26,215 nucleotides of DNA, taken from positions 1-26,215 of IMG/VR virus record IMGVR_UViG_3300023176_002312, one strand, 5' to 3'. The position numbers and the translations under genes were made by a program. Of the stretch, positions 5,718 to 25,898 are shown piece by piece. The stretch is from a virus. The notes beneath the pieces were generated by a model. The model saw only the letters and a program-made list of their open reading frames with translations. It searched no databases and was not told the DNA's origin. The stretch's first letter is position 1. The number at the start of each line of letters is the position of its first letter.

Positions 5718-5924
5718 ATGAGCTACATCAAAGTAAAAGGGCATGATGGTCTTGTCAGAGACGAGACCACAGGTGCCATCTTGAATCACGACAGTTCTGC
5801 TATTGAAGCAAGACGTAAATTGAAACACTTGAATTCCGCGTTGGAAGACATAAATATGTTGAAGGATGAAATCTCTGAAATCAAATCCCTACTTAGAGAG
5901 TTAGTAAAAAATGCCAGCAATTAA
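5718..5924 (+). CDS. Small coiled-coil protein of the structural cluster, function unknown
   Basis: This 68-residue protein starts 9 bases after the preceding stop and overlaps the next gene by 14 bases, so it is probably translated by coupling within a structural operon; no clear Shine-Dalgarno is visible. The N-terminal half (SYIKVKGHDGLVRDETTGAI) looks like a small folded strand segment. The C-terminal half (about residues 28-66) is a strongly charged amphipathic helix with heptad-like Leu/Ile spacing (LKHLNSALEDINMLKDEI...LLREL), which predicts a coiled coil. The opposite-strand frame over the same bases has no recognisable content. A place between two large virion genes suggests a minor structural or assembly-helper role, which is inference. 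I do not recognise a named family. Confidence 0.75.
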   Translation: MSYIKVKGHDGLVRDETTGAILNHDSSAIEARRKLKHLNSALEDINMLKDEISEIKSLLRELVKNASN

Positions 5925-9753: not shown

Positions 9754-10150
9754 GAGTAGCACCACAGAAAAATGCTCCTCTAATTGTAAATGCTTCGCTG
9801 AAGATTGGAGGAACTACAAACGCAGATTGGAATACAATCGCAACACTGAGTGAAGATCTTACTCTAAGACCAAATCCTGGTAAAAAAGTTGTAATTGATT
9901 CGTATACGCACCTAGCAATTCCTGCTGGAAACAACAATCAAAAGAACACCGCATCTGCCGTCCCTGGTTCAATTAGATTCAACACAGAGATTCAGCAGTT
10001 TGAAGGTTATAGTGGTACTAACTGGTCTTCTTTGGGTGGCGTTAGAGACGTTGATGGTAATACGTATATTATTCCTGAAACTGCTCCAGCAGCGAACGAG
10101 AATATCTTGTACTTCTACAATGATAATCTCAATACAATGAAGTTGTCTAG
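9180..10150 (+). repeat. Duplicated fibre module spanning the frame break
   Basis: Two copies, at about 9180-9480 and 9860-10150. Copy 1 reads DVIVTPASGRLAKVDSTT..., GSIRFNTTTGQYEGY, SLGGVRDIDGNTYI, LWFYNDGNNTVRL. Copy 2 reads DLTLRPNPGKKVVIDSYT..., GSIRFNTEIQQFEGY, SLGGVRDVDGNTYI, LYFYNDNLNTMKL. At DNA level 17 bases (ggttcaattagattcaa) are identical at 9293 and 9967, and the rest is diverged. The copies lie in different reading frames, which supports the view that one gene was split. Confidence 0.75.
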
Positions 10151-10790
10151 CACTGCTCTAGACTTTACAAACATTGATACTATTACAACTTCTGGATTAA
10201 ATAACCTTTCTCTTGATACTCCATTAGTAACTCTAAATCTAAATGAAACTACTATTGACAACCGAGACGTAACTAGAACTTTCATTAGTTCAAGTAAGCA
10301 ATATCTCGATCTAGGTCTTTCTTCTGGTTTGGTTGTTGATCCTATTCTTAGATTAGATGATCAAGGGGATGTCTATCTCAACACAACATTTGGAACAGGA
10401 ACTTTCAACGGAGTAAAAGTTTTTGACGGTGATCTAAAAGAATTTGAACTTGCTGATTATGCAATTAGAACTACATCATTCTCTTTAGGAAAGGGTGCCG
10501 CAGAAACATCAGCAGTCAATCTGTATCCAACATCAACTAATAAAGGATGTAAAGTGACCGTTGTTTCTAAGTCATCTTCTGGAAAGAGATCTATGACAGA
10601 ATATCATGTTATAGATAATGGTACTGATATTTTTTATAATGAATTTGGGTCTTTGAATACATCTCTAGATCAATATACAGCATCGTTTGATTACAATGCT
10701 GGCGAAGTCAGAATCACTTTGACATTATCTGACGACCATACTAATGGAGATATTATATCGTTCACCGTACTAAATCAGGTAATTAAGTAA
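9702..10790 (+). CDS. C-terminal part of the frame-disrupted tail-fibre-like protein
   Basis: This frame is open from 9654 (after TGA at 9651) and has no ATG near its beginning: only TTG codons at 9702 and 9750, then ATG at 10137, which falls inside a conserved module. The protein continues the preceding gene: 'EFTEIEELRVAPQKNAPLIVNASLKIGG' leads into 'DLTLRPNPGKKVVIDSYTHLAIPAG' and 'GSIRFNTEIQQFEGY...SLGGVRDVDGNTYI', a second copy of the module at the end of the 5911-9753 frame. The rest is beta-rich fibre sequence ending in 'FTVLNQVIK'. The next gene starts 1 base after its stop. It may be expressed by frameshifting, by re-initiation at TTG 9750 (which overlaps the TGA at 9751-9753), or not at all if the lost base is real. 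A sequencing error is also possible. The protein-coding nature of the frame is sure; the start is not. Confidence 0.7.
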   Translation: MVFSSGFSIEFTEIEELRVAPQKNAPLIVNASLKIGGTTNADWNTIATLSEDLTLRPNPGKKVVIDSYTHLAIPAGNNNQKNTASAVPGSIRFNTEIQQFEGYSGTNWSSLGGVRDVDGNTYIIPETAPAANENILYFYNDNLNTMKLSSTALDFTNIDTITTSGLNNLSLDTPLVTLNLNETTIDNRDVTRTFISSSKQYLDLGLSSGLVVDPILRLDDQGDVYLNTTFGTGTFNGVKVFDGDLKEFELADYAIRTTSFSLGKGAAETSAVNLYPTSTNKGCKVTVVSKSSSGKRSMTEYHVIDNGTDIFYNEFGSLNTSLDQYTASFDYNAGEVRITLTLSDDHTNGDIISFTVLNQVIK

Positions 10791-11341: not shown

Positions 11342-14300
11342 ATGAGTTTTCATATTAATTCCGACAAAGAGAAAATTAGAGGCGTAAACCCTAAACTCAT
11401 CGGTGATAATGAAGCTACAATTAGAATTGGTACAGGTTCTGATGAAAGAGAAGTATTCAGAGCACAGTTAGATCCTAATAGCAATCTCCCAAGAGTTGGT
11501 ATTAATAGAACTGGTCAGAAAGTCAATAACATTGACGTTACTGCGGGTGGTTCTGGATATACCCTCGCTCCAAATGTTGTAGTCTCAGCACCTGGAGCTG
11601 GTGGAACTCAGGCACTTGCTTCTGCTTTTATCTTTAATGGTTCTGTAACATCAATTGCTGTCAATGATCCTGGATCTGGATATACATCTCCACCAACTAT
11701 AACTATTACTGGTGGTAATGGTGCTGGTGCTACAGCAGAGGCATTCCTAGATACTATTGATTTTGAACTTGATATTAATGGTGCTATTAGAACTTCAACT
11801 TCTATCATCTCGGATACTGCTAGAGTTCTAAACCTCGACATTGAAAACTTTGTTACTCCTGATTTGGAACACAGAGGTCCAAATCTAAAAACATATATGA
11901 ATGCCACTGGCACAATTTGGGCTGCCAATGTTATTCTTCAAAAAGATGATTATCGATATTTCGGACAAAATGTTTATCAAGCACTAAACTCTGGTCAGAC
12001 TGGAAATATTGGTCCTGTTCACGGAGATGGTGTTGCTCTAAATGGTGAAGTACAATTCAAGCATATTGGTTTTAGAGTAATTGACGAAAATGCTCCATAT
12101 TATTTAGAGACTGGTCAGTCTGGTATTTTCCCAAGATCAATTACACCTCTTCTAGGTGATAGATCCGACAAAATTGCTACTACTGAATACGTCCTCAATC
12201 TAGCAACGAATGACGTTGGTGGTCGTATTTACGTTTCATCTCAAATTGGTTCTGACTTGAACGATGGTCGTTCGGCAGTAAACCCAGTCAGAACAATCAA
12301 AAAAGCAGCACAACTTGCTTGGGCAACTCCTGGAGTAAAAGAAACTTTAGTCGTTTCTGGTGGAGACTACGTAGAAGATAACCCAATTTCACTACCACCA
12401 GACTGTTCGGTTGTTGGCGATAACCTCCGTTTGGTTATTATTAGACCAGCAAATCCAAACAAACACATCTTTAAGTTTGGTGATAAGAACTACGTCACTG
12501 GTGTTACATACAGAGACCAAATTGATTCTAATGGCGATTCAGTTGCTACTTGGGATTATGCGATGGTCTTTGACGACAAGCAAAGAATTCTAGTTGACTA
12601 TGATGCCAATGGTGATTTTGGAACTAATTTCCCAATCGGTCATCAAATTTTTGGACCAAACAGGTTTAGAGTCGCTTTCCAAAATAATACTGGATTATCA
12701 AATCTAACAACTGGATTAGAGGTTGTTGGTGTTAACACTGGTGCTAGAGCAGGTGTTATTGATGTTGTTTTTACCACAACGACAGGAGCTAGTGCTTATA
12801 TCTCTGGTACTATCGACGTACAACTAAATTCTGGTTCCTTTGTTGAAGGTGAGCAATATAATTATATCACTTCTGCTGCAACTGGGGCAGCAATTAGTCT
12901 AACAATTAGTCAAACTGCTGGAACAAATACTCTAAGATTTACAGATGATCCAACTGCTGACATTCCAGTAGGTACTTACGTTTATCTAGATGATACCACA
13001 GATGCGAATTTTACTGCTGGGTATTACCAAGTAGGTTCTATTGATGATGCTAGTGCTCCTACTTATTGGGACGTATTGTTTATCCCAATTCTCAATGCAC
13101 CCTCTTGGGACACTTCAGCAAGTGCTTCTATAACAATCAACGAAGCAACTCCAACAATCAATGTTATTGATACCACCTCACTAAGATCAATTAGAGCTGA
13201 GGGTGAGGTCGTATCTGTAGATGATGATATTGTTGCTACTTTGCCAATCACAAGACTTGACTTCTCTTTACAAGGAGATCCAAGTATTGCTACTGGCGGT
13301 TTCCAGGAAGCACAATTTGGAAGTGCTGAAGATCTTGGTGGTGTTGTTTTCTACACTAACGATCTTGTAGGAAGATCCAATATCCACGACTTCAAAGAAG
13401 GTCAAGAAATTATAATTACGGGACTTCCAACTAGTAACCCAGATCTTTCTGCTTTGAATGGAAAGCAAAGAATTTATAAAGTTATTGAAGACGCTGATGG
13501 TCGTGCTAGAAGATTTGTAATTCCCAAAAAATTCCCAGGACTCGCTACTCCTGATTTAGATCCTGGTGAATTTGCTACTGTAAAATCGTATGCTAAAGCA
13601 GTTACGATTTCACTACTCAACTCACCAAACAAATTCCAGATTTCAACACCAGTTGATAGAAGATATCAGGATGCTTGTCTGCTTATCAAGAACAACCGAG
13701 ACTTCATTGCTGATGAAGTAGTAGGAAGAATCAATGACGAGTTCAAAAAAGAATATTATTCTGCTTACAATATTGACAATGTTGCGAATACATTTGATGT
13801 GTTCTTGGGAACTAGTAACTATGAACATACCTATGTAAGCGGTGGAACTGTAACTTGGAATGCTACAAATTACACAATTACAGATTTTGTTTGGGATAAT
13901 GCTTCTACTGGCGTTGCTACAATAACTCTATCTGGAACTCCTGGATTTGCTGAAGATGATATTGTAAAACTTTCCAATATTCTCGTAGAGTGTTCAAATG
14001 GTCAAAAACTCTATCCAAGTTTTAGCATCCCAGTAGATGATGAACAGTGCCGTCAAGACATCGTACACTTCTTAAACGCTCTAACAAGAGACCTCGAATT
14101 TGGTTCGAACCACAACGTTTTAGAAGCTGGTACAAAATATATTGTTGGTGCGAAAATTGATTATGTTGAAAATGAAATTATTCAAACTGTTCGTGCGATT
14201 GAATATGCTAGAGAACTAGCAATCTTTGCTATGTGTAATTGGAGAACTGGAAACAGAACTCCAGGAGATCCTTTATATACACCACAATATTCCACACTTG

Positions 14301-17300
14301 ATAGATATTTTGATGATACCGTCATTACTGCTACTGCTGGAACCCCCGCTTGTGCTAACGTAGCATCTGCTATTTCTACTTTATCATATCTATTCATTGA
14401 TGTTGTTGCCAATAACACCTCAGGAACTTACTTAGATGCTGCTTATCTAATCGGAAGAAACAAAGATCTTATTGCTCATCAGGCATTATTAGATACTCAA
14501 GCACAATATCCATCACTAGGTCTTTCAAATACACATGAAAGAAAGTGTTTGAGAGATATTGGTTATATTCTAAGAGGACTTATTAGAGACTTAAGTCTTG
14601 GTGGAAATTCTGGAATTGTAACAGCAGCTCAAGCATATTTCACTGGTAATGTTTTAAATGGCGTTGAAGCAAATCAAATTGCAGAAACAAGATATGCTTA
14701 CCAGAGAGTAGCAACATATGCAATCGCAGCAATGCGTAATTGGACTGATGGTTCAGGAAACGCAATCACAACTTCGTCTGATATCCCACAATTCACAGAT
14801 AACACTATTCTTGCTGATCCTGGTGATCCAGATTGCGCTAATGTAGCATCTTCAATCACCACTGAAATGGATCTATTAGATTCTATTTTAGAGTATGGCG
14901 AAGATGATACAAGTCCAACTGCTGTTGCTCCAACTTCTGTAACCAAGACTTACGGAACACTTTATGATTTTTCTGATATTGTTACATATCCAGATAGTTA
15001 CATTTATGACTTTAATAACCAAAGAGTAGCAATCCGTGGAGACTTTGACGATTATCCCATTATTGAAGCGTCTCCATACACCCAAAACGCTTCTGTTATC
15101 TCCTTCCTGGGCGGTAGCGGTGCTCTGGTTGACGGTTCTAAAGTTAAGCAACCCAACTGTCCTTTCCCTGGTCTAGAACTAGACGGAACAGCGTCCTTCC
15201 CCAACCAGGGTAAGTCGATGGTTGCTGCGGCATTCACGATCGTCTCCTTTGGTGGTACAGGATACAGAATTATTGAAGATGGTTATGTTCAGTTAGTTTC
15301 TGTATTCGTTATCTTCTGCCAAGATGGTGTCCTATCAGAAAGCGGTGGTTACGCATCTATCACTAACTCTGCTACAAATTTCGGTACATTTGCTCTCAGA
15401 GGAAAAGGATATAGAAGAGAAGCATATGAGTTTGACGTAGCAACTGTAGATGTTGTATCCCAAACCGCTACTGGTAGAACAACTCTAACAGTTTCTGGTC
15501 TTGGCAGAGAACCACTTGAGCACTATGTTGCTAAGTTTGATGGATTTACAAACTTTGATCCAGAAAGAGAATTCTTTATCGATGCCGTAACTAATGTTAC
15601 AGTTGGTCCTCCTTTCTCTGCGACAATTACACTCGAAGAAGGAACTGGACAACCACTACAACTTATTAGAGATTCTGATGGTGCTGTCATTACTGGTTTA
15701 ACAAACCTACAAAATGCTCTAACTCCACAGGGCAACAACGCAACTATCAGACTACATAGACCATCTATCGTCAACTCTTCTTCTCACACTTGGGAATTTG
15801 CTGGTTCTGGTACTAACTATCTGGCACTACCAGAAAACGGTGGTACTAAGATTGAGGCATACGAACAAGTATCAGAAGATTATGGTCGCGTTTACTGCTC
15901 TGGTACTGACGAACTTGGTGACTTCAAGGTTGGTACGTTTGCTAGAATTGAAAACAGAACTGGTAACATCACCTTCACTGGAACGGTTACCATCTCCGAA
16001 GTTGAATTCTTGAAACTGAAAGGTGGAGACGTTGTTGTTACTGGTTTCGATGCATCCAACACACTTGGCGGAGCTAACGCAACTGATTCCAAACTACCCA
16101 CACAGAAGGCAGTTAGGGACTATATCACCAACAACCTCGGTCCATATATCAATAAACCATACTCTACCAATGCTGTTCCTAGAGCACTGGTTGAACTTAC
16201 CGATTCTGGTAAGATTTCTGTCGATCAGATTCCAGCACTTAGACCATTCAGTGTTTATACTGTTGCCGATCAAGCAGCAAGACTTGAAATTGAAGGAGCA
16301 CTTGCTGGTGACATCGCAATTCAACAAGATACATCACAGTCATTCATTCTAAACAATGACTTAGATAGTCTATTCCTTGGTTTTGCTGTCGATCCTACAT
16401 TACAATTTACCCTACAAAATGTATATACTGGCACTCCTTCTACTGGTAGAATTCAAGCAACTGAGTATAGAGAAGGTGTTGTATACCAAATCAACATAAC
16501 AAATGGTGGTTCTGGATATACCGTTGCTCCAACTATTCAAATTACTGGTGGAAATCCAGATCCAGGTGGAGTTGCTGCTACAGCAACTTGTACCATTGCT
16601 AATGGTGAAGTTGTTACTGTTACCATTACAACAAATGCTGGATACAAAGGTGGTTTTGGTTACACAACTACTCCAACAGTTACATTCTCTGCTCCTCCTG
16701 GTGCTGGATCACAAGCAACTGGCACTGCTCTGCTAGAGAGTAGACTTTATGGTAACATTGTCAACAACATCAAAATGGTTGACACTGATACATTTGATGA
16801 TGATGCGGCAGCAACCATTAATATCAACCGTGTAGTTAACACATCTGGTAATACCAATTCAAACTGGGTATCTCTATCTACAAACCAGATTGCTGCTTCT
16901 GATATTACTTCTGGTGTTATTGAAACTGATAGATTGGCGTCTGGTGGTGCTGCAAACTCATTCACATTCCTCAGAGGTGATCAGAACTGGGCACTAGCAG
17001 TTCAGTCAATCAAAGGTGCTGAATCTAGATACTTTGCTCAACTCTATTCTGTTGCTACAGTTGGATCTTCCCAACTTATCTTCACAACCAACTCAAATAC
17101 TTTGATTGGACATGAAGTAATTCCTAACGTTGCTGGTATTGCCAACGACACTTCTATCAATGGTGTTATCACTACTGGTGGTCTAACAACGGTTTCAATC
17201 AATAATCCACTAACAGCAGAAATTGCTGCTGGAACTGTTATTGAATTTGAGAGAGGAGCATCACCACTCGTATTCGAATCATCATATACTCTCGGTGGAT

Positions 17301-20300
17301 TTGTCGAGCAGGTTGTCGTTGGTAGTGGAGGTCAAAACTTTACAGATGGTCAATATTTTGATGTTGGACTTGATGGTGGATCTGGAACAGGTCTGCGTGG
17401 AAATATCATTGTTTCTGGTGGAGCAGTTACCGAGGTAACTGTAACTAGTTCTGGAACAGGATACAATAATGATTTCACTATCACTCCAAATCCAGTTGAA
17501 ATTGGTTCTGGAACTGGTCTTGTTCTTCTCGGTAAAATTAGTACAGTCAACAGACAATATGCTAACGTCTCTCTTGATGTTCAGCGTGTTTCGGATCTGA
17601 CTATTTCTGCTGATGCTTACGGAACAATTGGTGTTGCTAGATTCAAAAAATCCCAATTCAAATTGGGTGAATCTGGTAATGGTTCTGTTGATATCAAAAC
17701 TGGTCCAGATAGTGGACTTGACGCTGACCTACTTGATGGCGCACAGGGTAGTTTCTATACCAATGCTTCCAATATCAGTTCTGGTACATTAGATTCAGAC
17801 AGACTATCTGGAACTTATAACATTGCTATTTCTGGTCAGTCTGCCAACACAATTAGACTACTAACTGGTACTACAAACCCATCTTCAAACCCACTACCAA
17901 AAGACTTTGCTTCTGGTGTTGTTCTAAACACTGTATTCAATAGTTCCAATGGATTGTCTACAGCATATCCAGATATCACTGGTATTGATCCAGATGATCC
18001 ACTTTCAACTCCAACATCAACCAAACATATGGTTATGACCCTCCGTAATGAGGGATCTGGAATTTCGACTGCTGGTGGTGTAAGACAACTAGCATTTGCT
18101 GATGATAATAACATCTACATCCGTGGATCTGGAACCGAAGCTGCGTCCGAGACTACATTTGGTTCTTGGAATAAGATTTGGTCGTCTGGAAACCATGGAA
18201 TTAATTCTCTACTTGATGCTGATAAACTTGACAACAAAGAAGGTCTTTGGTATCAAGACGCTTGGAATATCAAAACTAATGAACTATTCAATACTAGAAT
18301 CCCAACTTGGATGAGTTCAACCAAGTTCCGCAATCAAATTGAAGTTAAGTCTTACAGTGGAACTGATGTTTACTATAGAATTCTAGTTAGAAAGGCATTA
18401 GATGTTAATCCTGGTGGAGACTACGAGGCAAACTCTCAAGTCAACGTATATAATATCGGTAAACAGGATATCACTGACTTCTTTATTACTTCCACGGCAC
18501 AAAACATTGATAACGATGATCCAACAAATACTTATACCATTCTAATTGGTAGAGTTCCTTCTGGTGGAGATCTATCAACTGCCGCTTTCATTGGTTTTGC
18601 TGGTGAGGAAGAACCATTTGAAAACTACGAAATTTATGATGCCAATACTTACACATCAGCAAAACTTGGCAATGATGCTGGTTCAGGATTCTTACAGCTA
18701 GGAAGAAGAGATGGAACTGCTTCAAGTCCATACATTCATTTCAATTCATCTGCTACAGCTGCGGTAGATGGTAATAGTGATCCAACGTACAATGCTGCCA
18801 TTATTGCTTCTGGTGGTGATGGAACTGAGGGATCTGGAACACTTGAATTCAAGGTTGCTAATGAAAACGCATTGGAAATCAATGGCAGTGTTATTTGGAA
18901 CGCATCTAACGTAGCATTCAATAGTGCTAACGTTGCTACAACATATACTGGCGGCGGGGATCCTATCCTAAGATCTGCTGTAATGCGTGATTCTTTGGGT
19001 AATTTTGATGCTGGAACGATTACTGCTTCACTAACTGGTGCTGCTTCTCTCAACGTTCTGAGAGCAGGTGATGACATGACTGGTCCTTTGACCATTGGAA
19101 ATGTTGACGCAGCTAATCAAGCATTAGAAGTTTCTGGTAGAGCAGACTTCTTGAGCAATATCACCGTTGCTACAAACCTCACCGTTGATTCTGGAACACT
19201 TTATGTAAACGCTACTAATAATAGAGTTAGCATCAATACCCCAATTGATGGTGGAACAGGATCATTTATTGAAACTAATCCACTCAAGTTGAATGTTTAT
19301 TCTGCTTCTGGAAGTTTGTTATTCCAATCAAATACCGCACTCTCAACAAATACCGACTTCTACCAAGCATCAGTATTCAATAAAGTGGATGGTGGTGAAA
19401 CTGGATTACTTCTACAGCATGGTGCTACAACGACAGCACAATGGGGTATCTCTACTGTAAGAACTGGAAATTATGTTGGCAATCTTATCTTCAGAACAAG
19501 AACTGCTAATGCTACAAATGCCCTGAGACTAACTATCACAAATGGTGGAGACCTACTTCCTGGTACTGATAGTGATCAAGATCTCGGAAGCTCCACTCTA
19601 AGATGGCAAACTATTCATGGTGATGTCTACTTAGCAAAAGACAGTCTAAGAATTGGCGATGCTTCTACTAACGCCGAAGCGGATGTTCAATTCAAGGGTG
19701 CTGGTGCTTCTCCTGGTGGTGGTAGAAACTTCCGTGTTGGTAACAACATTGGTGCTGGTGTAGATGTATTTGCTATTTACTCTTCTGGAACTGATGGTGG
19801 AACTGATTGGAAGAACACTCTCGCAACTCCTCTTGCTCCAGCGTTAGCAATTCAGGGAACTAATAATAGACTTGCCATCAATACAACTGACTTCTCTGGA
19901 ACCGATAACACAGATCCAGATAACCCAGTAAATAGAGATTACATTTTGAATGTTGGTGGAGATGTCAATATCAATGGTCAGTTGTTCCAAAACAATGCTG
20001 AGTTTGTCACTTCAAGATGGACAGAAGCAACCAATGGTGATGATATTTACAGACTGTCTAGAGTTGGTATCAACAAAGCAGATCCAGAATATACTTTGGA
20101 TTGCGATGGAGACTTCAACGTAACTGGTGCTCTTTATGTAAACGGTATCGTCAAGTGGATTGATGCTGGTGGAATTATAAATATTGCTGGACAGACCATT
20201 TCTGAAAATCTAACCACACCACAGAACTCAATTCTGTATAGTTATGGAAATATAACTATAAATAGTGGATATGCGGTAACAGTTGGTGCTGGTACTTCTT

Positions 20301-20314
20301 GGACAATTTACTAA
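11342..20314 (+). CDS. Giant (2990-aa) tail-fibre-like virion protein with beta-helix-type core and twin helical modules
   Basis: Order of parts: an N-terminal head with two GGSGYTLAP / GSGYTSPPTI beta repeats (about 65-140); 'IYVSSQIGSDLNDGRSA' and 'PVRTIKKA' (about 295-325), the signature that opens right-handed parallel beta-helix proteins; Ser/Thr-rich beta segments; two related alpha-helical modules (about 770-1018 and 1028-1183); a second beta-helix-like part (about 1200-1390, 'GYASITNSATNFGTFALRG'); a fibre shaft with 'QKAVRDYITNNLG', another GGSGYTVAPTI repeat, and 'DADLLDG' / 'LLDADKLDN' repeats (about 1600-2320); and a tail with 'DSDQDLGSSTLRWQTI' and a closing 'GAGTSWTIY'. No membrane segment or signal peptide. 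It has its own late-type promoter box and a good ribosome site, and is followed by a glycine-rich tip-like gene. The length is far above T4 gp37 (about 1026 aa). The role as a long fibre or side appendage is inferred from motifs and order. Confidence 0.85.
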   Translation: MSFHINSDKEKIRGVNPKLIGDNEATIRIGTGSDEREVFRAQLDPNSNLPRVGINRTGQKVNNIDVTAGGSGYTLAPNVVVSAPGAGGTQALASAFIFNGSVTSIAVNDPGSGYTSPPTITITGGNGAGATAEAFLDTIDFELDINGAIRTSTSIISDTARVLNLDIENFVTPDLEHRGPNLKTYMNATGTIWAANVILQKDDYRYFGQNVYQALNSGQTGNIGPVHGDGVALNGEVQFKHIGFRVIDENAPYYLETGQSGIFPRSITPLLGDRSDKIATTEYVLNLATNDVGGRIYVSSQIGSDLNDGRSAVNPVRTIKKAAQLAWATPGVKETLVVSGGDYVEDNPISLPPDCSVVGDNLRLVIIRPANPNKHIFKFGDKNYVTGVTYRDQIDSNGDSVATWDYAMVFDDKQRILVDYDANGDFGTNFPIGHQIFGPNRFRVAFQNNTGLSNLTTGLEVVGVNTGARAGVIDVVFTTTTGASAYISGTIDVQLNSGSFVEGEQYNYITSAATGAAISLTISQTAGTNTLRFTDDPTADIPVGTYVYLDDTTDANFTAGYYQVGSIDDASAPTYWDVLFIPILNAPSWDTSASASITINEATPTINVIDTTSLRSIRAEGEVVSVDDDIVATLPITRLDFSLQGDPSIATGGFQEAQFGSAEDLGGVVFYTNDLVGRSNIHDFKEGQEIIITGLPTSNPDLSALNGKQRIYKVIEDADGRARRFVIPKKFPGLATPDLDPGEFATVKSYAKAVTISLLNSPNKFQISTPVDRRYQDACLLIKNNRDFIADEVVGRINDEFKKEYYSAYNIDNVANTFDVFLGTSNYEHTYVSGGTVTWNATNYTITDFVWDNASTGVATITLSGTPGFAEDDIVKLSNILVECSNGQKLYPSFSIPVDDEQCRQDIVHFLNALTRDLEFGSNHNVLEAGTKYIVGAKIDYVENEIIQTVRAIEYARELAIFAMCNWRTGNRTPGDPLYTPQYSTLDRYFDDTVITATAGTPACANVASAISTLSYLFIDVVANNTSGTYLDAAYLIGRNKDLIAHQALLDTQAQYPSLGLSNTHERKCLRDIGYILRGLIRDLSLGGNSGIVTAAQAYFTGNVLNGVEANQIAETRYAYQRVATYAIAAMRNWTDGSGNAITTSSDIPQFTDNTILADPGDPDCANVASSITTEMDLLDSILEYGEDDTSPTAVAPTSVTKTYGTLYDFSDIVTYPDSYIYDFNNQRVAIRGDFDDYPIIEASPYTQNASVISFLGGSGALVDGSKVKQPNCPFPGLELDGTASFPNQGKSMVAAAFTIVSFGGTGYRIIEDGYVQLVSVFVIFCQDGVLSESGGYASITNSATNFGTFALRGKGYRREAYEFDVATVDVVSQTATGRTTLTVSGLGREPLEHYVAKFDGFTNFDPEREFFIDAVTNVTVGPPFSATITLEEGTGQPLQLIRDSDGAVITGLTNLQNALTPQGNNATIRLHRPSIVNSSSHTWEFAGSGTNYLALPENGGTKIEAYEQVSEDYGRVYCSGTDELGDFKVGTFARIENRTGNITFTGTVTISEVEFLKLKGGDVVVTGFDASNTLGGANATDSKLPTQKAVRDYITNNLGPYINKPYSTNAVPRALVELTDSGKISVDQIPALRPFSVYTVADQAARLEIEGALAGDIAIQQDTSQSFILNNDLDSLFLGFAVDPTLQFTLQNVYTGTPSTGRIQATEYREGVVYQINITNGGSGYTVAPTIQITGGNPDPGGVAATATCTIANGEVVTVTITTNAGYKGGFGYTTTPTVTFSAPPGAGSQATGTALLESRLYGNIVNNIKMVDTDTFDDDAAATININRVVNTSGNTNSNWVSLSTNQIAASDITSGVIETDRLASGGAANSFTFLRGDQNWALAVQSIKGAESRYFAQLYSVATVGSSQLIFTTNSNTLIGHEVIPNVAGIANDTSINGVITTGGLTTVSINNPLTAEIAAGTVIEFERGASPLVFESSYTLGGFVEQVVVGSGGQNFTDGQYFDVGLDGGSGTGLRGNIIVSGGAVTEVTVTSSGTGYNNDFTITPNPVEIGSGTGLVLLGKISTVNRQYANVSLDVQRVSDLTISADAYGTIGVARFKKSQFKLGESGNGSVDIKTGPDSGLDADLLDGAQGSFYTNASNISSGTLDSDRLSGTYNIAISGQSANTIRLLTGTTNPSSNPLPKDFASGVVLNTVFNSSNGLSTAYPDITGIDPDDPLSTPTSTKHMVMTLRNEGSGISTAGGVRQLAFADDNNIYIRGSGTEAASETTFGSWNKIWSSGNHGINSLLDADKLDNKEGLWYQDAWNIKTNELFNTRIPTWMSSTKFRNQIEVKSYSGTDVYYRILVRKALDVNPGGDYEANSQVNVYNIGKQDITDFFITSTAQNIDNDDPTNTYTILIGRVPSGGDLSTAAFIGFAGEEEPFENYEIYDANTYTSAKLGNDAGSGFLQLGRRDGTASSPYIHFNSSATAAVDGNSDPTYNAAIIASGGDGTEGSGTLEFKVANENALEINGSVIWNASNVAFNSANVATTYTGGGDPILRSAVMRDSLGNFDAGTITASLTGAASLNVLRAGDDMTGPLTIGNVDAANQALEVSGRADFLSNITVATNLTVDSGTLYVNATNNRVSINTPIDGGTGSFIETNPLKLNVYSASGSLLFQSNTALSTNTDFYQASVFNKVDGGETGLLLQHGATTTAQWGISTVRTGNYVGNLIFRTRTANATNALRLTITNGGDLLPGTDSDQDLGSSTLRWQTIHGDVYLAKDSLRIGDASTNAEADVQFKGAGASPGGGRNFRVGNNIGAGVDVFAIYSSGTDGGTDWKNTLATPLAPALAIQGTNNRLAINTTDFSGTDNTDPDNPVNRDYILNVGGDVNINGQLFQNNAEFVTSRWTEATNGDDIYRLSRVGINKADPEYTLDCDGDFNVTGALYVNGIVKWIDAGGIINIAGQTISENLTTPQNSILYSYGNITINSGYAVTVGAGTSWTIY
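13651..14890 (+). repeat. Two related helical modules inside the giant fibre gene
   Basis: Module 1 (about 13651-14390) and module 2 (about 14430-14890) share an ordered set of elements: DACLLIKNNRDFIADEV / DAAYLIGRNKDLIAHQA; CRQDIVHFLNALTRDLEFG / CLRDIGYILRGLIRDLSLG; N-x-x-V...A-x-x-Y; YARELAIFAMCNW / YQRVATYAIAAMRNW; and ACANVASAIST / DCANVASSITT. Module 1 is longer because of a beta insertion after its first helix (about 13760-14000). The helical character contrasts with the beta-rich rest of the protein. Confidence 0.75.
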
Positions 20315-20339: not shown

Positions 20340-21371
20340 ATGTCAGAATTAAATGTTGGAAGATTGAATGCCACTGGAAGTGGTGTAAAATTCCCCTCAT
20401 TCGCAACAGCGAACTTACCAGCTGGTGAGATCGGACTAACTGTTTGGGATACGGATGATGAGAAACTAAAAATTTATAATGGAGCTAACTGGGTTGAAGT
20501 TCCTGGTCAAGCAGATCACCCAGTTGGTAACCAAGCATTTTCATATACGGGAAATGATCAATCTTGGGTTGTTCCCGAAAACGTAACCAAGATCAGAATT
20601 AAGGTCTGGGGCGGCGGCGGAGGCGGCGGCGGTAAATCTGGATGGTCAGATGGTGGTCGCGGAGGCGGCGGCGGATACGCCAGTGGCATTATGGATGTTA
20701 CACCAGGAACCGCTTACACAGTTGTAGTGGGTGCTAGTGGTGTACAAAGATCTCCAACACAAACATATGGTGGCGGAGGAAGAGCAAATAATGCTTGGGG
20801 TCCTGGATCTGGTGGTGGTCTTTCTGGAGTGTTCAACGGAGGAAACTCAGTATTTTCTGGATATACTCCACAAACTGGAGCATTTTCTAGAGTTCTTCTA
20901 GTAGCTGGTGGCGGTGGTGGCGGTGGTGCTAACCGCAACCCAGGTTCTACCAATGGTGGTGGAGGTGGCGGAACTTCTGGTTCTAACGGTACATCTAACT
21001 ATGGTGGAAACAACGGTACTGGAGCATCACAGTCTTCTGCTGGATCAAGTAACTGCACTACTGCTGCTGGTCAACTAAGAGGTGGTGATGTTAATGGTCC
21101 ATATGGCGGCGGCGGTGGCGGCGGTTATTATGGCGGAGGTGCTGGTTGCTATCAAGAACCACTTGATATGGGTGGTGGCGGTGGTGGATCTGGTTACGTT
21201 TCCGCTGCCGTTTCTCAAGGTGTGCTAGTTTCTGGTGGTAATGGAACTGGAACTACTGCTGGAGGATCTCCTGGCAACAGTGCTGACGCTGATGGACAAG
21301 GTGCTGGTACAGGTGGTAATTACGATCAGGCAGGAAGTCCTGGTAGAGTTGTTATCTCTTGGCCCTACTAA
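20340..21371 (+). CDS. Glycine-rich fibre-tip / adhesin-like protein
   Basis: 343 residues. The N-terminus (about 1-60; 'ELNVGRLNATGSGVKFPSF', 'GLTVWDTDDEKLKIYNGANW') resembles the attachment segment used by many T4-like cyanophage fibre proteins. Then 'TWVVPENVTKIRIKVWGGGGGGGG'-type sequence (the strand order is SWVVP, KIRIKVWG, poly-Gly) begins a glycine-rich domain (about 85-343) with runs of Gly, YASGIMDVTPG, YTVVVGASG, VLLVAGGGGGGG and a final 'GRVVISWPY'. This matches the general Gly-rich domain found at phage fibre tips, and T-even gp38 adhesins likewise use glycine-rich segments to present host-binding loops. Two Cys (in SNCTTAAG and AGCYQEP) could pair. AGGA lies only 3 bases before the ATG, so initiation may depend on coupling. 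It follows the giant fibre gene, like gp38 after gp37 in T-even phages. Receptor binding is inferred. Confidence 0.7.
   Translation: MSELNVGRLNATGSGVKFPSFATANLPAGEIGLTVWDTDDEKLKIYNGANWVEVPGQADHPVGNQAFSYTGNDQSWVVPENVTKIRIKVWGGGGGGGGKSGWSDGGRGGGGGYASGIMDVTPGTAYTVVVGASGVQRSPTQTYGGGGRANNAWGPGSGGGLSGVFNGGNSVFSGYTPQTGAFSRVLLVAGGGGGGGANRNPGSTNGGGGGGTSGSNGTSNYGGNNGTGASQSSAGSSNCTTAAGQLRGGDVNGPYGGGGGGGYYGGGAGCYQEPLDMGGGGGGSGYVSAAVSQGVLVSGGNGTGTTAGGSPGNSADADGQGAGTGGNYDQAGSPGRVVISWPY
20608..20632 (+). repeat. GGC-rich triplet run coding for poly-glycine
   Basis: A run of GGC/GGA/GGT codons, the most G+C-rich short stretch in the window, encodes eight consecutive glycines. Similar shorter runs occur at about 20659-20675, 20908-20930 and 21104-21138. 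Mixed third bases (gga, ggt) interrupt perfect triplet repetition. Confidence 0.8.
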
Positions 21372-21959
21372 TCACCTAAATTTAGGACCACAAACCCATC
21401 CAACTAAAGCATATCTAGTACCTTCTGTTACTGGCAATACTTCATGAAGAATGTAGGATGGAAATGATGTCATCGTTCCGATTTCTTTATCGGCAATAAT
21501 AGCAGTATCACTATAATAAAATCTTAAATCTCCTCCAGTATACTCCTCTTCTTTTGAAAGTTGTATACTGAAGGAGATTTTTCTTGGTCTAGTTTCATAT
21601 TCTCCCATGTCCAAATGTTTACCATAAAAATCACCGTCTGATGTATATTCAGTAAATTGAAGATTTTGAATTAGATCAATATCAAATTTGTAGTATTCGG
21701 AATTTAGCAAATTTACAGCATCAGTTATTTTTTGAAATATCCATTCGTTCTCTCGAATATCCGATCTAATCCAAGAAAGTTTACATTTTCTATAACTAAA
21801 ATCCTGAACTTTATCGCCAATCATCGCATCAGTTTTTGATGAGTGTGTTTCCGATTTCCCAATTTCTATAATTTTTTCAATTTCTTTATTTGAAAAAATA
21901 TTTTTTATAGTGGCATAAGGAACATTATTATATTTTTGAGTCCACCAAGAATATTCCAT
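21372..21959 (-). CDS. 2-oxoglutarate/Fe(II)-dependent oxygenase, prolyl-4-hydroxylase-like
   Basis: 195 residues. The double-stranded beta-helix core shows the iron triad and 2OG anchor in order: His115-x-Asp117 in 'FYGKHLDMGE', His172 in 'SYILHEVLPV' and Arg182 in 'TEGTRYALVGWV'. The 'GGDLRFYYSD' strand and the 'EVLPVTEGTRYALVGW' ending are typical of the P4H/PKHD-type branch. Such enzymes hydroxylate an unactivated C-H bond using O2 and 2OG, releasing succinate and CO2; the substrate here is unknown (protein side chain or small molecule). It is the last gene of the five-gene minus-strand cassette, starting 2 bases after the halogenase stop. Its stop codon directly abuts the stop of the convergent glycine-rich gene. 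Fold and chemistry are well supported; substrate and role are not. Confidence 0.85.
   Translation of the reverse strand: MEYSWWTQKYNNVPYATIKNIFSNKEIEKIIEIGKSETHSSKTDAMIGDKVQDFSYRKCKLSWIRSDIRENEWIFQKITDAVNLLNSEYYKFDIDLIQNLQFTEYTSDGDFYGKHLDMGEYETRPRKISFSIQLSKEEEYTGGDLRFYYSDTAIIADKEIGTMTSFPSYILHEVLPVTEGTRYALVGWVCGPKFR
21375..21386. repeat. Perfect 12-bp palindrome at the convergent junction
   Basis: CCTAAATTTAGG is its own reverse complement and lies within the last codons of the minus-strand oxygenase (T-K-F-R region), just inside the point where the plus and minus transcription units meet. It lacks a loop and a T-tract, so it is not an intrinsic terminator. Confidence 0.5.
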
Positions 21960-21961
21960 AG

Positions 21962-23452
21962 TTAGTTTACAAAATCAATAAATGTTTCGATAGAAGATGA
22001 TACCCGATAAAAACTAGAAATTTTATCTAAATGATCGTTTAGTTCTTCTTCTAAAATTTCTTCTGGAATATTCCATGTTTTGAAGATAGACTCAATCGTT
22101 TCTTTATTGAAGTGACCCAATCCAGCCAAAACAGGATTCCATAAAATTTGGTTGGTTGATCCATAGTAGGTCTCAAAATCATCCCACCTAGTTAATCTCT
22201 CTTTACTAAGACTCAAAATTTCAGAAACTTTGTCAGTGATTTGTTTTTCATTTGTCACGTAATTCCAAAATTCTGTGTCTGTTCTTCCTCCAGTGTAATG
22301 TAATGAGATAAAGTCAACCATATTATCACACAATTTTGCTGTTCTCTTATTATATCCACTAACAACACTAGCAGAAAGAGTTCTATCAATGTCGTCATTG
22401 AAACAATTGCGTATAAAATCATTGATTTGGCAGACAGCGCAATGAATTTGTGTTGCCTGCATTGGTTCTACAGAAAGATTTGCCAAACCAATAGATACGC
22501 AGTTGCCATTGATAGACTTTTTCAATCTATTAGATTTAAATTTCCAGTTATTCTTTACTTTGATTTTAGATCCAAAGTATTCTTCAACCTCTTCAATGGC
22601 ACCGTCCTTATCCAAAAATTTATCACAGAATACATAACCTCGTTGAGTTGAATATTGTTTGAAGATTTCAAACATCCACCCAGCGTTCATAGCATTGGCA
22701 TTAGTATACGCATGTTTTTTTGGATCTTCATCTAAAACATCAAAAACAATACATTCATTTAGAGGTAAATAATCAGAGTAGTCTTTAGTTTCTACATCCA
22801 ATTCTTTTGATAAAATTCTAGCATAACCACTACAATCAAAGAACAGATCTCCTTCAACAACAGAACCATTCTCTAGAGTAACACTTTTGATTTTTTCTTC
22901 TTCTGTTGATACTTCTTTGATAGTAGAGTCAATAACAGATACTCCATTCTTGACAGACAGATCTCTAAAATATTCTCCAGTTTTATAGTTATCTAAGTGG
23001 TATGAGTGTAGCCCATAGTCATAAAAATTTATTCCGCCATTTTCAATAGAGAAAGAAGTTCTATCTCTATTACTCAGATATCCAGTAGCACTAGTATCAT
23101 CAACATCTTTATCTTTTAAAATACTGTAGAACAAAGTGCTATCAAGAAAATTTCCAGATGTAGCAGTTCCTTCGATAGGAGAGAAAAAAGAACTACCTTT
23201 AGTTGTCCAGTTGTTGAATTTTACTCCAAGCTTCGGAATCACATTTGCTTTCTTGATAAAATCAAATTCATTGATTTCAAAAAATGGTTCTGTAAGAATT
23301 CTTCTGAACACACCCGTTACTCCCTCACCAACACCAATGGTTGGAATTTTGGAACTGGAGATATTGATATATTCATGATTGGGTCGAATTTTAGACAACA
23401 TAAAAGTTGTAATCCACCCAGCTGTGCCACCACCAACAATTACGATTTTCAT
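21962..23452 (-). CDS. Flavin-dependent (tryptophan-type) halogenase
   Basis: 496 residues, near the usual 500-530 of the family. The FAD-binding start is 'MKIVIVGGGTAGW' (GxGxxG region at 7-13) and 'GVGEGV' follows at 40-45. The family's catalytic Lys is probably Lys74 in 'PKLGVKFNNW'. 'DLFFDCSGYARIL' (202-214) is the second FAD motif, and 'SVEPMQATQIH' matches the family's EP(L)E...IH element. The signature WxWxIP is altered to W-M-F-E-I-F (259-264). The family uses FADH2 and O2 to make hypohalous acid from a halide, which forms a Lys chloramine (or equivalent) that halogenates electron-rich aromatics. A cyanophage member, VirX1, has been described as a broad iodinating/halogenating enzyme (established literature, recalled). 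No flavin reductase is seen nearby, so a host one would be needed. Overlaps the methyltransferase by 4 bases. Confidence 0.85.
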   Translation of the reverse strand: MKIVIVGGGTAGWITTFMLSKIRPNHEYINISSSKIPTIGVGEGVTGVFRRILTEPFFEINEFDFIKKANVIPKLGVKFNNWTTKGSSFFSPIEGTATSGNFLDSTLFYSILKDKDVDDTSATGYLSNRDRTSFSIENGGINFYDYGLHSYHLDNYKTGEYFRDLSVKNGVSVIDSTIKEVSTEEEKIKSVTLENGSVVEGDLFFDCSGYARILSKELDVETKDYSDYLPLNECIVFDVLDEDPKKHAYTNANAMNAGWMFEIFKQYSTQRGYVFCDKFLDKDGAIEEVEEYFGSKIKVKNNWKFKSNRLKKSINGNCVSIGLANLSVEPMQATQIHCAVCQINDFIRNCFNDDIDRTLSASVVSGYNKRTAKLCDNMVDFISLHYTGGRTDTEFWNYVTNEKQITDKVSEILSLSKERLTRWDDFETYYGSTNQILWNPVLAGLGHFNKETIESIFKTWNIPEEILEEELNDHLDKISSFYRVSSSIETFIDFVN

Positions 23453-24057
23453 TTGTTCTTATACCAAATCCATGTGTTGTCATATGTACTCATTTGGGAT
23501 TGTAGATTATTAGTTTCTCTAAATCCCATTACTGCTAATTTAATTGCTGGACAATTCCAGTCATGACCAGCAAAAATTCCGCCGTCTTTTACTTTTGGAT
23601 ACCAGACTTCTAAGTCATTTTTAGCCTGTTCAAATGACATGTAAGTATCGATGAAAATGAAGTCTAAAGATTTATCTTCTACTTTCTGTGCCGCTTCATT
23701 GCTATCCATTTCGTAGAATATAATTTTTTCTTCATGACCAGAGTATTGCTGGTTATGGTATGAAGTCAATTTGATGTACTCAATTTGTTTCTTGTCTACA
23801 CAATATGCAGGTGTCTTGCCGTCATAATCATCTTTTAGATAATCCGCATATGGTTCATAAGAATCTACGCCATAAAGTTTCGAAACGTTGGGACAGTTTT
23901 GTAAAATAGTCAAAAAACTATCTCCCCTGTAAACTCCTATTTCAGCACCAACTAAATTGTCTCCGTGTAAATTTATACAATGAATGATGCTTTTGATATC
24001 TGTTTGGGCATCTTTATAATTGTAGAACGGATCACTAATAATCAAATGTTTTTCCAT
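23449..24057 (-). CDS. Class I SAM-dependent methyltransferase (Methyltransf_24-like)
   Basis: 202 residues with the Rossmann methyltransferase layout: SAM-binding motif I 'GAEIGVYRGDSF' (37-48), acidic residue at the end of strand 2 (Asp65 in 'LYGVDSYEPY'), 'LDFIFIDTYMSFEQAKNDL' (131-149) and 'KDGGIFAGHDW' (157-167). The IDxxxxFExxKxDLxxW...GGxxxGHDW ordering is characteristic of the Methyltransf_24 group seen in sugar and natural-product tailoring and in cyanophage genomes. Its acceptor cannot be read from sequence. It overlaps the upstream oxygenase gene by 16 bases and the downstream halogenase gene by 4 (ATGA), so the three are likely translated together. The C-terminus 'TYDNTWIWYKNK' is short with no extra domain. 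Fold confident, substrate unknown. Confidence 0.8.
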   Translation of the reverse strand: MEKHLIISDPFYNYKDAQTDIKSIIHCINLHGDNLVGAEIGVYRGDSFLTILQNCPNVSKLYGVDSYEPYADYLKDDYDGKTPAYCVDKKQIEYIKLTSYHNQQYSGHEEKIIFYEMDSNEAAQKVEDKSLDFIFIDTYMSFEQAKNDLEVWYPKVKDGGIFAGHDWNCPAIKLAVMGFRETNNLQSQMSTYDNTWIWYKNK

Positions 24058-24659
24058 AATTCATCCCGAAATACTTTTTCCCTGTCAACTATTCTATCAT
24101 ACTTATAAGAGTTATGTGGACCAGTTTTTTCGACATAGTGTAAGAACATTTGACCCAAATAGTAAGTCTCATCATGCTGACATTTTTCTCGCCAGTGTTC
24201 TACGTCTATACCTCGATAAATTACAGCATCGCCATCTTCTAGAAAAAATTTATCTCCTCCCATAAAAATAGGGTAGTTATAATTTTTTGTGTCCGACAGT
24301 TTTATGGTCACACTAATTTCACATGCTGGTCTGTCAACATGTTTTACCAATTCATTTCCATTTGTATAAATTCTTGCCATCGAATATGTTGGGTACAAAG
24401 ATAACCCAGTGATAGATTCTACCTTTCTTGTAGATGTTTTTAGTAAAGAGTCTAGAACGATATCATTTGCTTTCTGGCAAATACACCCTGGAACAGTTTT
24501 ACTAGTGACAATCTCTTCGCCTCTCAGCATAGAAACTTGAGTAGAAAATTTTAGATATTCATATAGAGTTTCTGCGAAATGGAGATCTATAAAATTTTTT
24601 ACAAGAGTATATCCTCTTTGCTCAAAAATTGAACGCAGCTGTAATTCTTGGTTTGTCAT
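24042..24659 (-). CDS. 2-oxoglutarate/Fe(II)-dependent oxygenase (second of the cassette)
   Basis: 205 residues from ATG 24659; an in-frame TTG at 24668 is a less likely start. His107-x-Asp109 ('LVKHVDRPAC') gives the facial pair, and 'GDAVIYRGIDVEHWRE' places the distal His at 155 with Arg157 near it. 'QMFLHYVEKTGPH' is a conserved-looking end to the core. 'SVTIKLSD' and 'YPIFMGGDKFFLEDGDAVIYRG' are the expected jelly-roll strands. This form (KHxDRP...SVTI...VEHWRE...FLHYV) recurs in T4-like cyanophage genomes as an uncharacterised oxygenase (recollection). It overlaps the upstream gene by 38 bases and the methyltransferase by 16, so it is tied into the operon by position. The 2OG-binding Arg/Lys is not certain by eye. 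Substrate unknown. Confidence 0.78.
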   Translation of the reverse strand: MTNQELQLRSIFEQRGYTLVKNFIDLHFAETLYEYLKFSTQVSMLRGEEIVTSKTVPGCICQKANDIVLDSLLKTSTRKVESITGLSLYPTYSMARIYTNGNELVKHVDRPACEISVTIKLSDTKNYNYPIFMGGDKFFLEDGDAVIYRGIDVEHWREKCQHDETYYLGQMFLHYVEKTGPHNSYKYDRIVDREKVFRDELWKNI

Positions 24660-25203
24660 TTGTTCCAATTTCTACCATATGTCTTATGTTTGATCTAAAG
24701 ATCAAAAGAGTTCTTTCTTGTGGTGAATAGAAAGATTGTTTGAATGTTAGATCATTTTCTTCTGTGATTCCTTTCACTGGAAGCATGTCTGGTTCCGTTG
24801 GGTTTTGGAAAATTATTCTTCCAGACCCAGGTGGTGTTGCTATGTAGTAGACAGCACTGAATGTGGAGTTTGCGTGGCAATGGTATTCTTGATATGAATT
24901 TTTTTGATTTATATTTAACCATCCACTATTACACTCATAGTCATGAGTAGAGTTGTGATACTTCAAAAAAGTTTTTAGGTGTTTGTTTATGTTGTTTAGC
25001 AGTGTATCAAACCTAGGATCTTCGATCACATTATGAGACCCCATGGTGTTTTTTGTGTTACAATTCCAATTGTGTGCTCCAGACTCACTCTTGTCAAAAA
25101 TTTCTTCAGAAAATTTTTTTAGGTCCTCATTGTATGAATGCTCTACAATATCTTCTGCGGCATATATTGCTGTTGGAAACCAAGTGTGTATTTGGAAGGA
25201 CAT
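24622..25203 (-). CDS. Putative 2OG-Fe(II) oxygenase of the 2OG-FeII_Oxy_5 type (first of the cassette)
   Basis: 193 residues from ATG 25203 (MSFQIHTWFPTAIY, the usual N-terminus of this group: 'WFPTxIY'). Core features: 'SGWLNINQKNSYQEYHCHAN' with His108-x-His110, where other subgroups have HxD; 'STFSAVYYIATPPGSGRIIF'; then 'LLIFRSNIRHMVE' with distal His175, and 'KPRITAAFNF' with Arg186. The frame extends upstream to an ATG at 25242 and another at 25218. Those would lie in or before the sigma70-like promoter, so I chose 25203, which leaves a leader of only a few bases. It overlaps the next gene by 38 bases. As first gene it sets the level of the cassette. Role unknown; in other phages this group is likewise uncharacterised. 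Confidence 0.75.
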   Translation of the reverse strand: MSFQIHTWFPTAIYAAEDIVEHSYNEDLKKFSEEIFDKSESGAHNWNCNTKNTMGSHNVIEDPRFDTLLNNINKHLKTFLKYHNSTHDYECNSGWLNINQKNSYQEYHCHANSTFSAVYYIATPPGSGRIIFQNPTEPDMLPVKGITEENDLTFKQSFYSPQERTLLIFRSNIRHMVEIGTNDKPRITAAFNF

Positions 25204-25275: not shown

Positions 25276-25542
25276 ATGCTTAGGGAAGAAATTGAGGTGG
25301 TAAAAATTGAAACCCACCCAGCTGGTCAAATCGGAATTCATAAAATTGAAAAAGTTTATAAAAATAATGATTTGTTGAGCACAAGAAACTTATTCAACTT
25401 ATATAATCCAGGAGATTCAATTCCAGCAGATGAAGATGATGCGGTCAAAAATATCGCAACGGTCATGTGGACTGAAGCGACGATCACTAGATATAACACT
25501 GACGCAGCTAGAACTATTCAAGATTATAAACCAGAAGATTGA
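25276..25542 (+). CDS. Small hypothetical protein, 88 aa
   Basis: Starts at ATG 25276, 27 bases after a late-promoter-like box; no Shine-Dalgarno precedes it. A GTG at 25297 preceded by AGGGAAGAA is a possible alternative start. The protein opens with strand-like 'EEIEVVKIETHPAGQIGIHKIEKVYKN', has a middle 'LFNLYNPGDSIPADEDDAVKNIA' and ends in acidic 'DYKPED'. No known motif, membrane helix or signal peptide. The first gene of a three-gene plus-strand group, it reads away from the metabolic cassette. The small size and late-type promoter suggest a minor virion or assembly protein, but I do not recognise it. Confidence 0.7.
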   Translation: MLREEIEVVKIETHPAGQIGIHKIEKVYKNNDLLSTRNLFNLYNPGDSIPADEDDAVKNIATVMWTEATITRYNTDAARTIQDYKPED

Positions 25543-25547
25543 ACGTT

Positions 25548-25898
25548 ATGAATATCAAACATTACACACATTGTCCAGAATGTGGTGAAAAATGGATTGG
25601 GGAACCAATTCCAATTGAAGATAGACATAAATACGAACCTCCATATTTTTATTATCATCTCATTGAATACGCAACTATAGATCCAGATAATAAATTTATC
25701 TATGAATGTCCTGGTTGCAGAGGATTTTTTCCAAAATTTTACGATCCAGAAAAAACAGACATTAATATTTGGAGATCAATTCTAAACTCATATGCTATAT
25801 CAAATGATAGTATGCGATGCGGCAATTGTCACACAGATTTAGAAGAATCCAAATTAATTGTGGAGGAATTAAAAAAGGTTGTTATTATAGAAGAATAA
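25548..25898 (+). CDS. Small CXXC-rich (zinc-ribbon-like) protein, 116 aa
   Basis: Start chosen at ATG 25548, 5 bases after the previous stop; a TTG at 25539 in frame would overlap it. Three CXXC pairs are visible: Cys9/Cys12 in 'HCPECGEKW', Cys54/Cys57 in 'YECPGCRGF' and Cys91/Cys94 in 'MRCGNCHTD'. Two could form one four-Cys zinc site and the third pair could be a second half-site. The first pair followed by GEKW is typical of treble-clef or ribbon-like proteins. Between them lies an aromatic patch (PPYFYYHLIEY). The last residues form a helix ending 'LKKVVIIEE'. A metal-binding, possibly nucleic-acid- or protein-binding role is inferred. The stop codon lies inside the next late-promoter-like box. 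No named family recognised. Confidence 0.7.
   Translation: MNIKHYTHCPECGEKWIGEPIPIEDRHKYEPPYFYYHLIEYATIDPDNKFIYECPGCRGFFPKFYDPEKTDINIWRSILNSYAISNDSMRCGNCHTDLEESKLIVEELKKVVIIEE

What the first reader, a model, noticed from the sequence alone, without database searches (positions are those of the whole stretch)
21372..25203. Five-gene reverse-strand tailoring cassette: three 2OG oxygenases, a methyltransferase and a flavin halogenase
Seen: five genes on the strand opposite to the structural genes, joined by overlaps of 38, 16 and 4 bases and a 2-base gap, with one sigma70-like promoter at the head. Established: 2OG-Fe(II) oxygenases hydroxylate (some halogenate), the SAM enzyme methylates, and the flavin enzyme halogenates electron-rich aromatics. 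Inference: this is one functional set acting on the same or linked substrates, in style like a natural-product tailoring operon, carried as auxiliary metabolism inside the late virion region. Possible targets are a host pigment or indole compound, a cell-surface glycan, or a virion protein. No scaffold-building enzyme (NRPS, PKS, terpene synthase) is present, so the substrate would come from the host or virion.
Basis: partly seen in the sequence, partly recalled or inferred. Interest (0 to 1): 0.75.

Follow-up and report, generated by a model that had tools for sequence, protein, structure and literature searches.

The report
Adhesin-linked oxygenase and flavoenzyme cassette
A marine virus of bacteria carries a conserved five-gene set of oxygenases, a methyltransferase and a halogenase-like flavoenzyme that is inherited and swapped together with its glycine-rich tail-tip adhesin, which suggests that it chemically finishes the part of the virus that grips the host.

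Summary
The five reverse-strand genes are real, with the stated overlaps. The single sigma70 promoter is no better than chance. The window is a T4-like (Kyanoviridae-type) phage fragment; the cassette lies between the giant tail fibre plus a poly-glycine adhesin and the gene that precedes neck gene g13. The same five families in the same order, ending convergent to the adhesin, recur in another IMG/VR contig (41-55% protein identity); two more keep the order with one or two extra oxygenases; a further contig has all five plus the adhesin, reshuffled. Across 14 phages, poly-glycine adhesin and enzyme battery at this locus go together (5/6 versus 0/8, p = 0.003; small, related sample), and two isolates of one species swap both together. 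The 'halogenase' keeps the flavin motif and catalytic lysine, but the glutamate of tryptophan halogenases is glutamine and WxWxIP is degenerate, so it should not be called a tryptophan halogenase. Gene 4 ('ferrochelatase' in PHROGs) folds like prolyl hydroxylases. Best explanation: post-translational tailoring of the phage's own adhesin; the substrate is unproven. Cyanophage halogenases and 2OG-oxygenase arrays are known; I found no paper describing the conserved adhesin-linked cassette or the glutamine clade.

The parts
11342..20314 (+). Giant tail-fibre protein (2990 aa), 5' border of the variable locus
   Evidence: same place in S-RIM44, S-RSM4, S-MbCM7
20340..21371 (+). Poly-glycine adhesin (343 aa, 29% Gly), proposed substrate; motifs WGPGS, RNPGS, GGYYGGGAGCYQEPLDMGGGGGGSGY
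   Evidence: PF12810 ALK_LTK_GRD 37.7 bits; alignment with relatives
21372..21959 (-). OXY3: 2OG-Fe(II) oxygenase, PKHD/prolyl-hydroxylase-like, convergent with the adhesin gene (stop codons abut)
   Evidence: PF13640 54.6 bits; HxD...H conserved; nearest PDB PKHD-type hydroxylases
21962..23452 (-). Halogenase-like flavoenzyme, glutamine type (Gln332 at the PrnA E346/PyrH E354 position, Lys74 kept, WMFEIF for WxWxIP)
   Evidence: PF04820; alignment; model pLDDT 91.4 and PDB fold hits
23449..24057 (-). SAM-dependent methyltransferase
   Evidence: PF13578 62.4 bits, TylF 29.4 bits
24042..24659 (-). phrog_2954 2OG oxygenase, labelled 'ferrochelatase' in PHROGs and phage records
   Evidence: phrog_2954 E 3.7e-44; model pLDDT 94.9, best PDB hits prolyl-4-hydroxylase 4iw3/4j25
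24622..25203 (-). OXY5: putative 2OG-Fe(II) oxygenase, head of the cassette
   Evidence: PF13759 71.3 bits; TIGR02466 94.7 bits
25920..26120 (+). phrog_580 protein that directly precedes neck gene g13 in relatives; 3' border of the locus

Best explanation
The cassette is an adhesin-maturation module. Five cytoplasmic enzymes modify the phage's own poly-glycine tail-tip adhesin (20340-21371) before or during virion assembly. The PKHD/prolyl-hydroxylase-like OXY3, encoded tail to tail with the adhesin, would hydroxylate residues in conserved loop motifs (candidates: the prolines of WGPGS and RNPGS). The other 2OG enzymes, the methyltransferase and the glutamine-type flavoenzyme would add hydroxyl, methyl and possibly halogen groups to other residues, for example Tyr/Trp in GGYYGGGAGxYxEP, and so tune receptor binding or stability. 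Shown: gene content, order, recurrence, linkage to the adhesin, and co-swapping. Inferred: that the adhesin is the substrate, which residues, and the chemistry of each enzyme.
For: Same gene order with tight spacing in window and 3300021356_001786; order plus insertions in 3300033273_000350 and 3300006345_000027; all five plus adhesin in 3300025785_000041. Motif-first adhesin scan: five of five informative contigs with the WGPGS and R(N/S)P motifs have OXY3 convergent 7-8 bases away; one 53.5-kb contig whose adhesin lacks both motifs has no OXY3. At the fibre-g13 locus of 14 phages, poly-Gly adhesin coincides with at least 3 enzymes (5/6 vs 0/8, Fisher p 0.003; Spearman 0.83). S-RIM44 isolates Np and W2 are 94-98% identical from phrog_580/g13 on but differ in adhesin and battery together. 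OXY3 and gene 4 resemble protein prolyl hydroxylases. Poly-Gly domains of S16/PP01 gp38 and of cyanophage Pam3 gp24 are receptor-binding tips.
Against: No substrate shown. The methyltransferase also occurs alone between late sigma factor and gp47 genes in S-P4 (60% identity), and glutamine-type flavoenzymes occur away from adhesins in S-PM2 and S-RIM44. Broad OXY3, OXY5 and halogenase families are not generally beside poly-Gly ORFs. Sf-CH1b has a poly-Gly adhesin with only one oxygenase. SnoN and other small-molecule 2OG enzymes are also top fold hits for gene 4. Samples are small and related.
Confidence: 0.5

Rival explanations
1. Receptor modification: the enzymes alter a host surface precursor (glycan, lipid or outer-membrane protein) that this adhesin recognises, so that infected cells exclude superinfection or released virions are not trapped on debris. 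Such a set would also travel with the adhesin.
For: Predicts the same adhesin linkage and swapping; the methyltransferase also matches TylF, which methylates sugar-bearing molecules.
Against: No glycosyltransferase or other glycan gene in the cassette; OXY3 and gene 4 look like protein hydroxylases; adhesin proline motifs track OXY3 in the few cases seen.
Confidence: 0.17
2. Small-molecule auxiliary metabolism: the five enzymes tailor a host pigment, indole or phenol.
For: PF04820 enzymes usually act on small aromatics; VirX1 iodinates many small molecules in vitro (PMC8407142); glutamine-type enzymes also occur without adhesins.
Against: Does not predict linkage to one adhesin type or co-swapping within a species; no scaffold enzyme, transporter or flavin reductase among the cassette genes.
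Confidence: 0.17
3. Loose collection: only OXY3 is tied to the adhesin; the other four are independent cargo gathered at a recombination hot spot near the fibre genes.
For: OXY3 is the one member always at the adhesin, while others drop out or move (L290, L292, L253); the methyltransferase and the flavoenzyme have separate homes elsewhere.
Against: The same five-gene order with tight spacing at 41-68% protein identity argues for joint selection.
Confidence: 0.16

Closest known systems
VirX1, flavin-dependent halogenase of cyanophage Syn10 (PDB 6QGM)
   Same: PF04820 phage enzyme; its gene lies next to fibre genes and a run of small genes in Syn10 (identity of the gene to 6QGM)
   Different: VirX1 keeps the catalytic Glu and WxWxIP; the window enzyme has Gln and WMFEIF and falls in another clade. 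VirX1 has shown activity; this one has none shown.
Cyanophage prnA (T4-GC 212) of S-PM2 and S-RIM44
   Same: Same glutamine-type clade, about 42% identity
   Different: Lies between tRNA, hli and talC-type genes, without oxygenases or an adhesin beside it
2OG-Fe(II) oxygenase arrays of T4-like cyanophages and pelagiphages (S-RSM4, HTVC008M, Mosig)
   Same: Same locus next to g13; HTVC008M also on the reverse strand
   Different: Different family mix and order, no methyltransferase with them; published idea is 2OG/nitrogen control or DNA repair (PMC3037559)
gp38 of S16/PP01 and Pam3 gp24 glycine-rich tail adhesins
   Same: Poly-glycine receptor-binding tip; Pam3 gp24 resembles an ALK extracellular domain and the window adhesin hits PF12810 ALK_LTK_GRD
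   Different: No modifying enzymes mentioned in the passages read
Viral prolyl 4-hydroxylase (PBCV-1)
   Same: Virus-encoded 2OG hydroxylase with peptide substrates (cited in PMC9301287)
   Different: Eukaryotic algal virus, tied there to collagen-like protein; no collagen-like repeats in four large structural proteins here

Membership tests
Tryptophan halogenase (PrnA/RebH/PyrH type) | PF04820 domain and fold | tested here: met
   285.8 bits; PyrH is the top fold hit
Tryptophan halogenase (PrnA/RebH/PyrH type) | GxGxxG flavin motif and catalytic Lys (PrnA K79) | tested here: met
   GGGTAG and K74, invariant in A7 and A9
Tryptophan halogenase (PrnA/RebH/PyrH type) | Catalytic Glu (PrnA E346, PyrH E354) | tested here: not met
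   Q332; Q in 33 of 272 distinct phage sequences, E in 208
Tryptophan halogenase (PrnA/RebH/PyrH type) | WxWxIP motif | tested here: not met
   WMFEIF; PMC8407142 says the motif is absent in some true halogenases
Flavin-dependent halogenase in the wide sense | Forms a carbon-halogen bond | not testable with these tools
   Needs enzyme assay
2OG-Fe(II) oxygenase (OXY3) | HxD...H iron triad and 2OG-binding Arg | tested here: met
   H115, D117, H172, R182 conserved
2OG-Fe(II) oxygenase (gene 4) | Double-stranded beta-helix fold with HxD...H | tested here: met
   H107, D109, H155 invariant; fold hits 4iw3, 4j25, PHD2
2OG-Fe(II) oxygenase (OXY5) | HxD/E...H iron triad | tested here: inconclusive
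   Aligned sequences show HxH...H instead of HxD; PF13759 and TIGR02466 membership is clear
Ferrochelatase (PHROGs label of phrog_2954) | Ferrochelatase fold | tested here: not met
   Best PDB matches are 2OG oxygenases
Glycine-rich (gp38/Pam3-type) adhesin | Poly-Gly domain beside tail-fibre genes | tested here: met
   29% Gly, PF12810 hit, follows the giant fibre gene
Glycine-rich (gp38/Pam3-type) adhesin | Binds the host receptor at the fibre tip | not testable with these tools
   Needs structure and adsorption assays

The most novel reading that the evidence does not exclude
Phages carry a dedicated multi-enzyme maturation system that hydroxylates, methylates and perhaps halogenates their own receptor-binding adhesin, with enzymes and adhesin exchanged as one module; the glutamine-type flavoenzyme would be a new class acting on protein tyrosine or tryptophan.
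Probability: 0.42. Interest if true: 0.88.

Novelty: new variant of a known kind. Interest (0 to 1): 0.62.

Why it matters
Cyanophage 'tryptophan halogenases' and the abundant cyanophage 2OG oxygenases have no established natural substrate in the papers read here and are usually filed as auxiliary metabolism. Linkage to one adhesin type turns this into a testable proposal: look for modified residues on the tail-tip protein. If true, post-translational chemistry is part of phage host recognition, and the natural role of VirX1 could be sought in the same place.

Tried and rejected
Ferrochelatase for gene 4: rejected by fold. Defence or anti-defence: PADLOC gives only generic CRISPR-associated 2OG models and nothing for the other genes. 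Collagen-like substrate: no Gly-X-Y runs in four large structural proteins. T4-like late promoter TATAAATA: 56 near matches against 45 expected, no exact match in the cassette head. A broad claim that all OXY3, OXY5 or halogenase genes sit beside poly-Gly ORFs is not supported: OXY3 23 adjacent against 14.8 at random positions, halogenases 1 against 7.0. L073 looked like a further oxygenase/RNP-motif pair, but its oxygenase is 22% identical with E 0.016, so it was dropped. Bacterial source of the glutamine clade: one genome-contig scan gave a single 31% relative, uninformative. Searching viral contigs with the single halogenase sequence found one 28% relative; alignments were used instead.

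Full report
OBSERVATION. The window is a 26,215-base virus record. The five reverse-strand genes exist, and the stated overlaps are right once the ATG starts at 25203 and 24659 are used. Pfam and PHROGs give PF13640, PF04820, PF13578, phrog_2954 and PF13759. The claimed sigma70 promoter is within chance (26 matches, 22.4 +/- 4.4 expected) and ends too close to the start codon.

WHERE IT IS. Structural genes match phrog_358, phrog_473, phrog_6005 and phrog_5449 and cyanomyoviruses at about 42%. The order giant fibre, poly-glycine adhesin, cassette, small genes, phrog_580 corresponds to the Kyanoviridae locus between the giant fibre and neck gene g13; the window ends just before g13. In cultured phages this locus may be nearly empty (S-H9-1, S-MbCM7), may hold about nine 2OG-like genes (S-RSM4), halogenases plus 2OG genes (S-RIM44 Np, Sf-CH3), or a reverse-strand oxygenase array (HTVC008M).

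CONSERVED CASSETTE. Viral-contig scans and profile annotation show the order OXY5, gene 4, methyltransferase, halogenase-like, OXY3, then the convergent adhesin, in 3300021356_001786 (enzymes 41-55% identical to the window's; the adhesin is only partly on the contig). 3300033273_000350 has the same order with one inserted oxygenase (enzymes 53-68%, adhesin 75%). 3300006345_000027 has the same order with two inserted oxygenases; its contig ends inside OXY3, so its adhesin is not visible. 3300025785_000041 has all five plus the adhesin, with the enzymes reshuffled and OXY3 still convergent with the adhesin. Two further contigs, close relatives of each other (3300021091_000332, 3300027759_000111), share adhesin, OXY3, OXY5 and the halogenase-like gene but lack the methyltransferase and gene 4.

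ADHESIN LINK. A motif-first scan for EPxDMGGGGG, independent of the enzymes, gave 7 contigs. The five with WGPGS and RNPGS/RNPNS/RSPGS motifs and visible flanks all have OXY3 convergent 7-8 bases away, stop codons not counted. One 53.5-kb contig whose adhesin lacks both proline motifs has no OXY3 and no PF04820 gene. One contig ends inside the adhesin. The motif-OXY3 association rests on one counter-case, so it is suggestive only. In a 14-phage comparison of the locus, poly-Gly adhesin and at least three enzymes coincide (5 of 6 against 0 of 8; Fisher p = 0.003). That table includes the window and a close relative; leaving them out gives 3 of 4 against 0 of 8 (p about 0.02, my arithmetic). Related phages are not independent, and the threshold of three enzymes was set after I had seen the loci. 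S-RIM44 isolates Np and W2 share 94-98% DNA identity from phrog_580 and g13 on, yet differ in adhesin and battery together.

THE FLAVOENZYME. Fold and family are clear. The position of the catalytic Glu of tryptophan halogenases holds Gln332, by alignment to PyrH E354. The glutamine-type sequences form one clade in the tree (99/97), and the three close cassette copies group with the window's (100/99). According to the review PMC8407142, Glu to Gln slows PrnA about 100-fold, phenol halogenases lack the Glu, and WxWxIP is thought to prevent monooxygenation. A phenol-type (tyrosine-like) halogenase and a monooxygenase are therefore both possible; this is inference.

THE OXYGENASES AND METHYLTRANSFERASE. 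OXY3 is nearest by sequence to PKHD-type hydroxylases and, more weakly, to the Pseudomonas EF-Tu prolyl hydroxylase. Gene 4 folds like that same hydroxylase and other 2OG enzymes, including small-molecule ones such as SnoN. OXY5 shows HxH...H in place of HxD...H. A JmjC_2 protein in the S-RIM44 array is of a family whose known members hydroxylate proteins (own knowledge). The methyltransferase matches no solved structure well (best E 0.024).

MECHANISM. I think the set most likely modifies the adhesin (0.5). Receptor modification predicts the same linkage and remains open, as do small-molecule metabolism and a partly independent cargo model. Nothing here shows a substrate, a modification or co-transcription.

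KNOWN VERSUS NEW. prnA and 2OG oxygenases in cyanophages are long known (PMC3037559, PMC2984593), as is VirX1 (PMC8407142), which I located in a fibre-adjacent gene array of Syn10. Paper searches for oxygenases with tail fibres and hydroxylation found no adhesin-modification proposal for cyanophages, but the library lacks most subscription papers. One paper notes that viral use of prolyl 4-hydroxylase 'remains cryptic' and mentions collagen in tail fibres (PMC9301287).

Noticed in passing
window 9702-9753: phrog_6005 (virion structural protein) is split over two frames, 5911-9753 and 9702-10790; a real frameshift or an assembly error cannot be told apart here.
   Followed up: partly
window 25539-25898: 119-aa Cys-rich, zinc-ribbon-like protein between cassette and phrog_580, with no relative among the fetched loci.
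   Followed up: no
L009 17804-18511; L378 6706-8904: A family without Pfam name in S-RIM44 (RIM103), with similar-looking genes (one a weak DUF6065 hit) beside the poly-Gly adhesin of the contig that lacks OXY3; perhaps another adhesin-linked enzyme family.
   Followed up: partly
L009 21035-21760; L391 25276-25971: JmjC_2 (PF08007) protein in the adhesin-linked arrays of S-RIM44 Np; a homologue by profile in Sf-CH3.
   Followed up: no
L181 11290-15132: A second, opposite-strand group of oxygenases plus DUF6445 and a NUDIX-like gene beside the reshuffled cassette.
   Followed up: no
L370 (G002), L205 (G011): Viral contigs with three and four PF04820 genes each.
   Followed up: no
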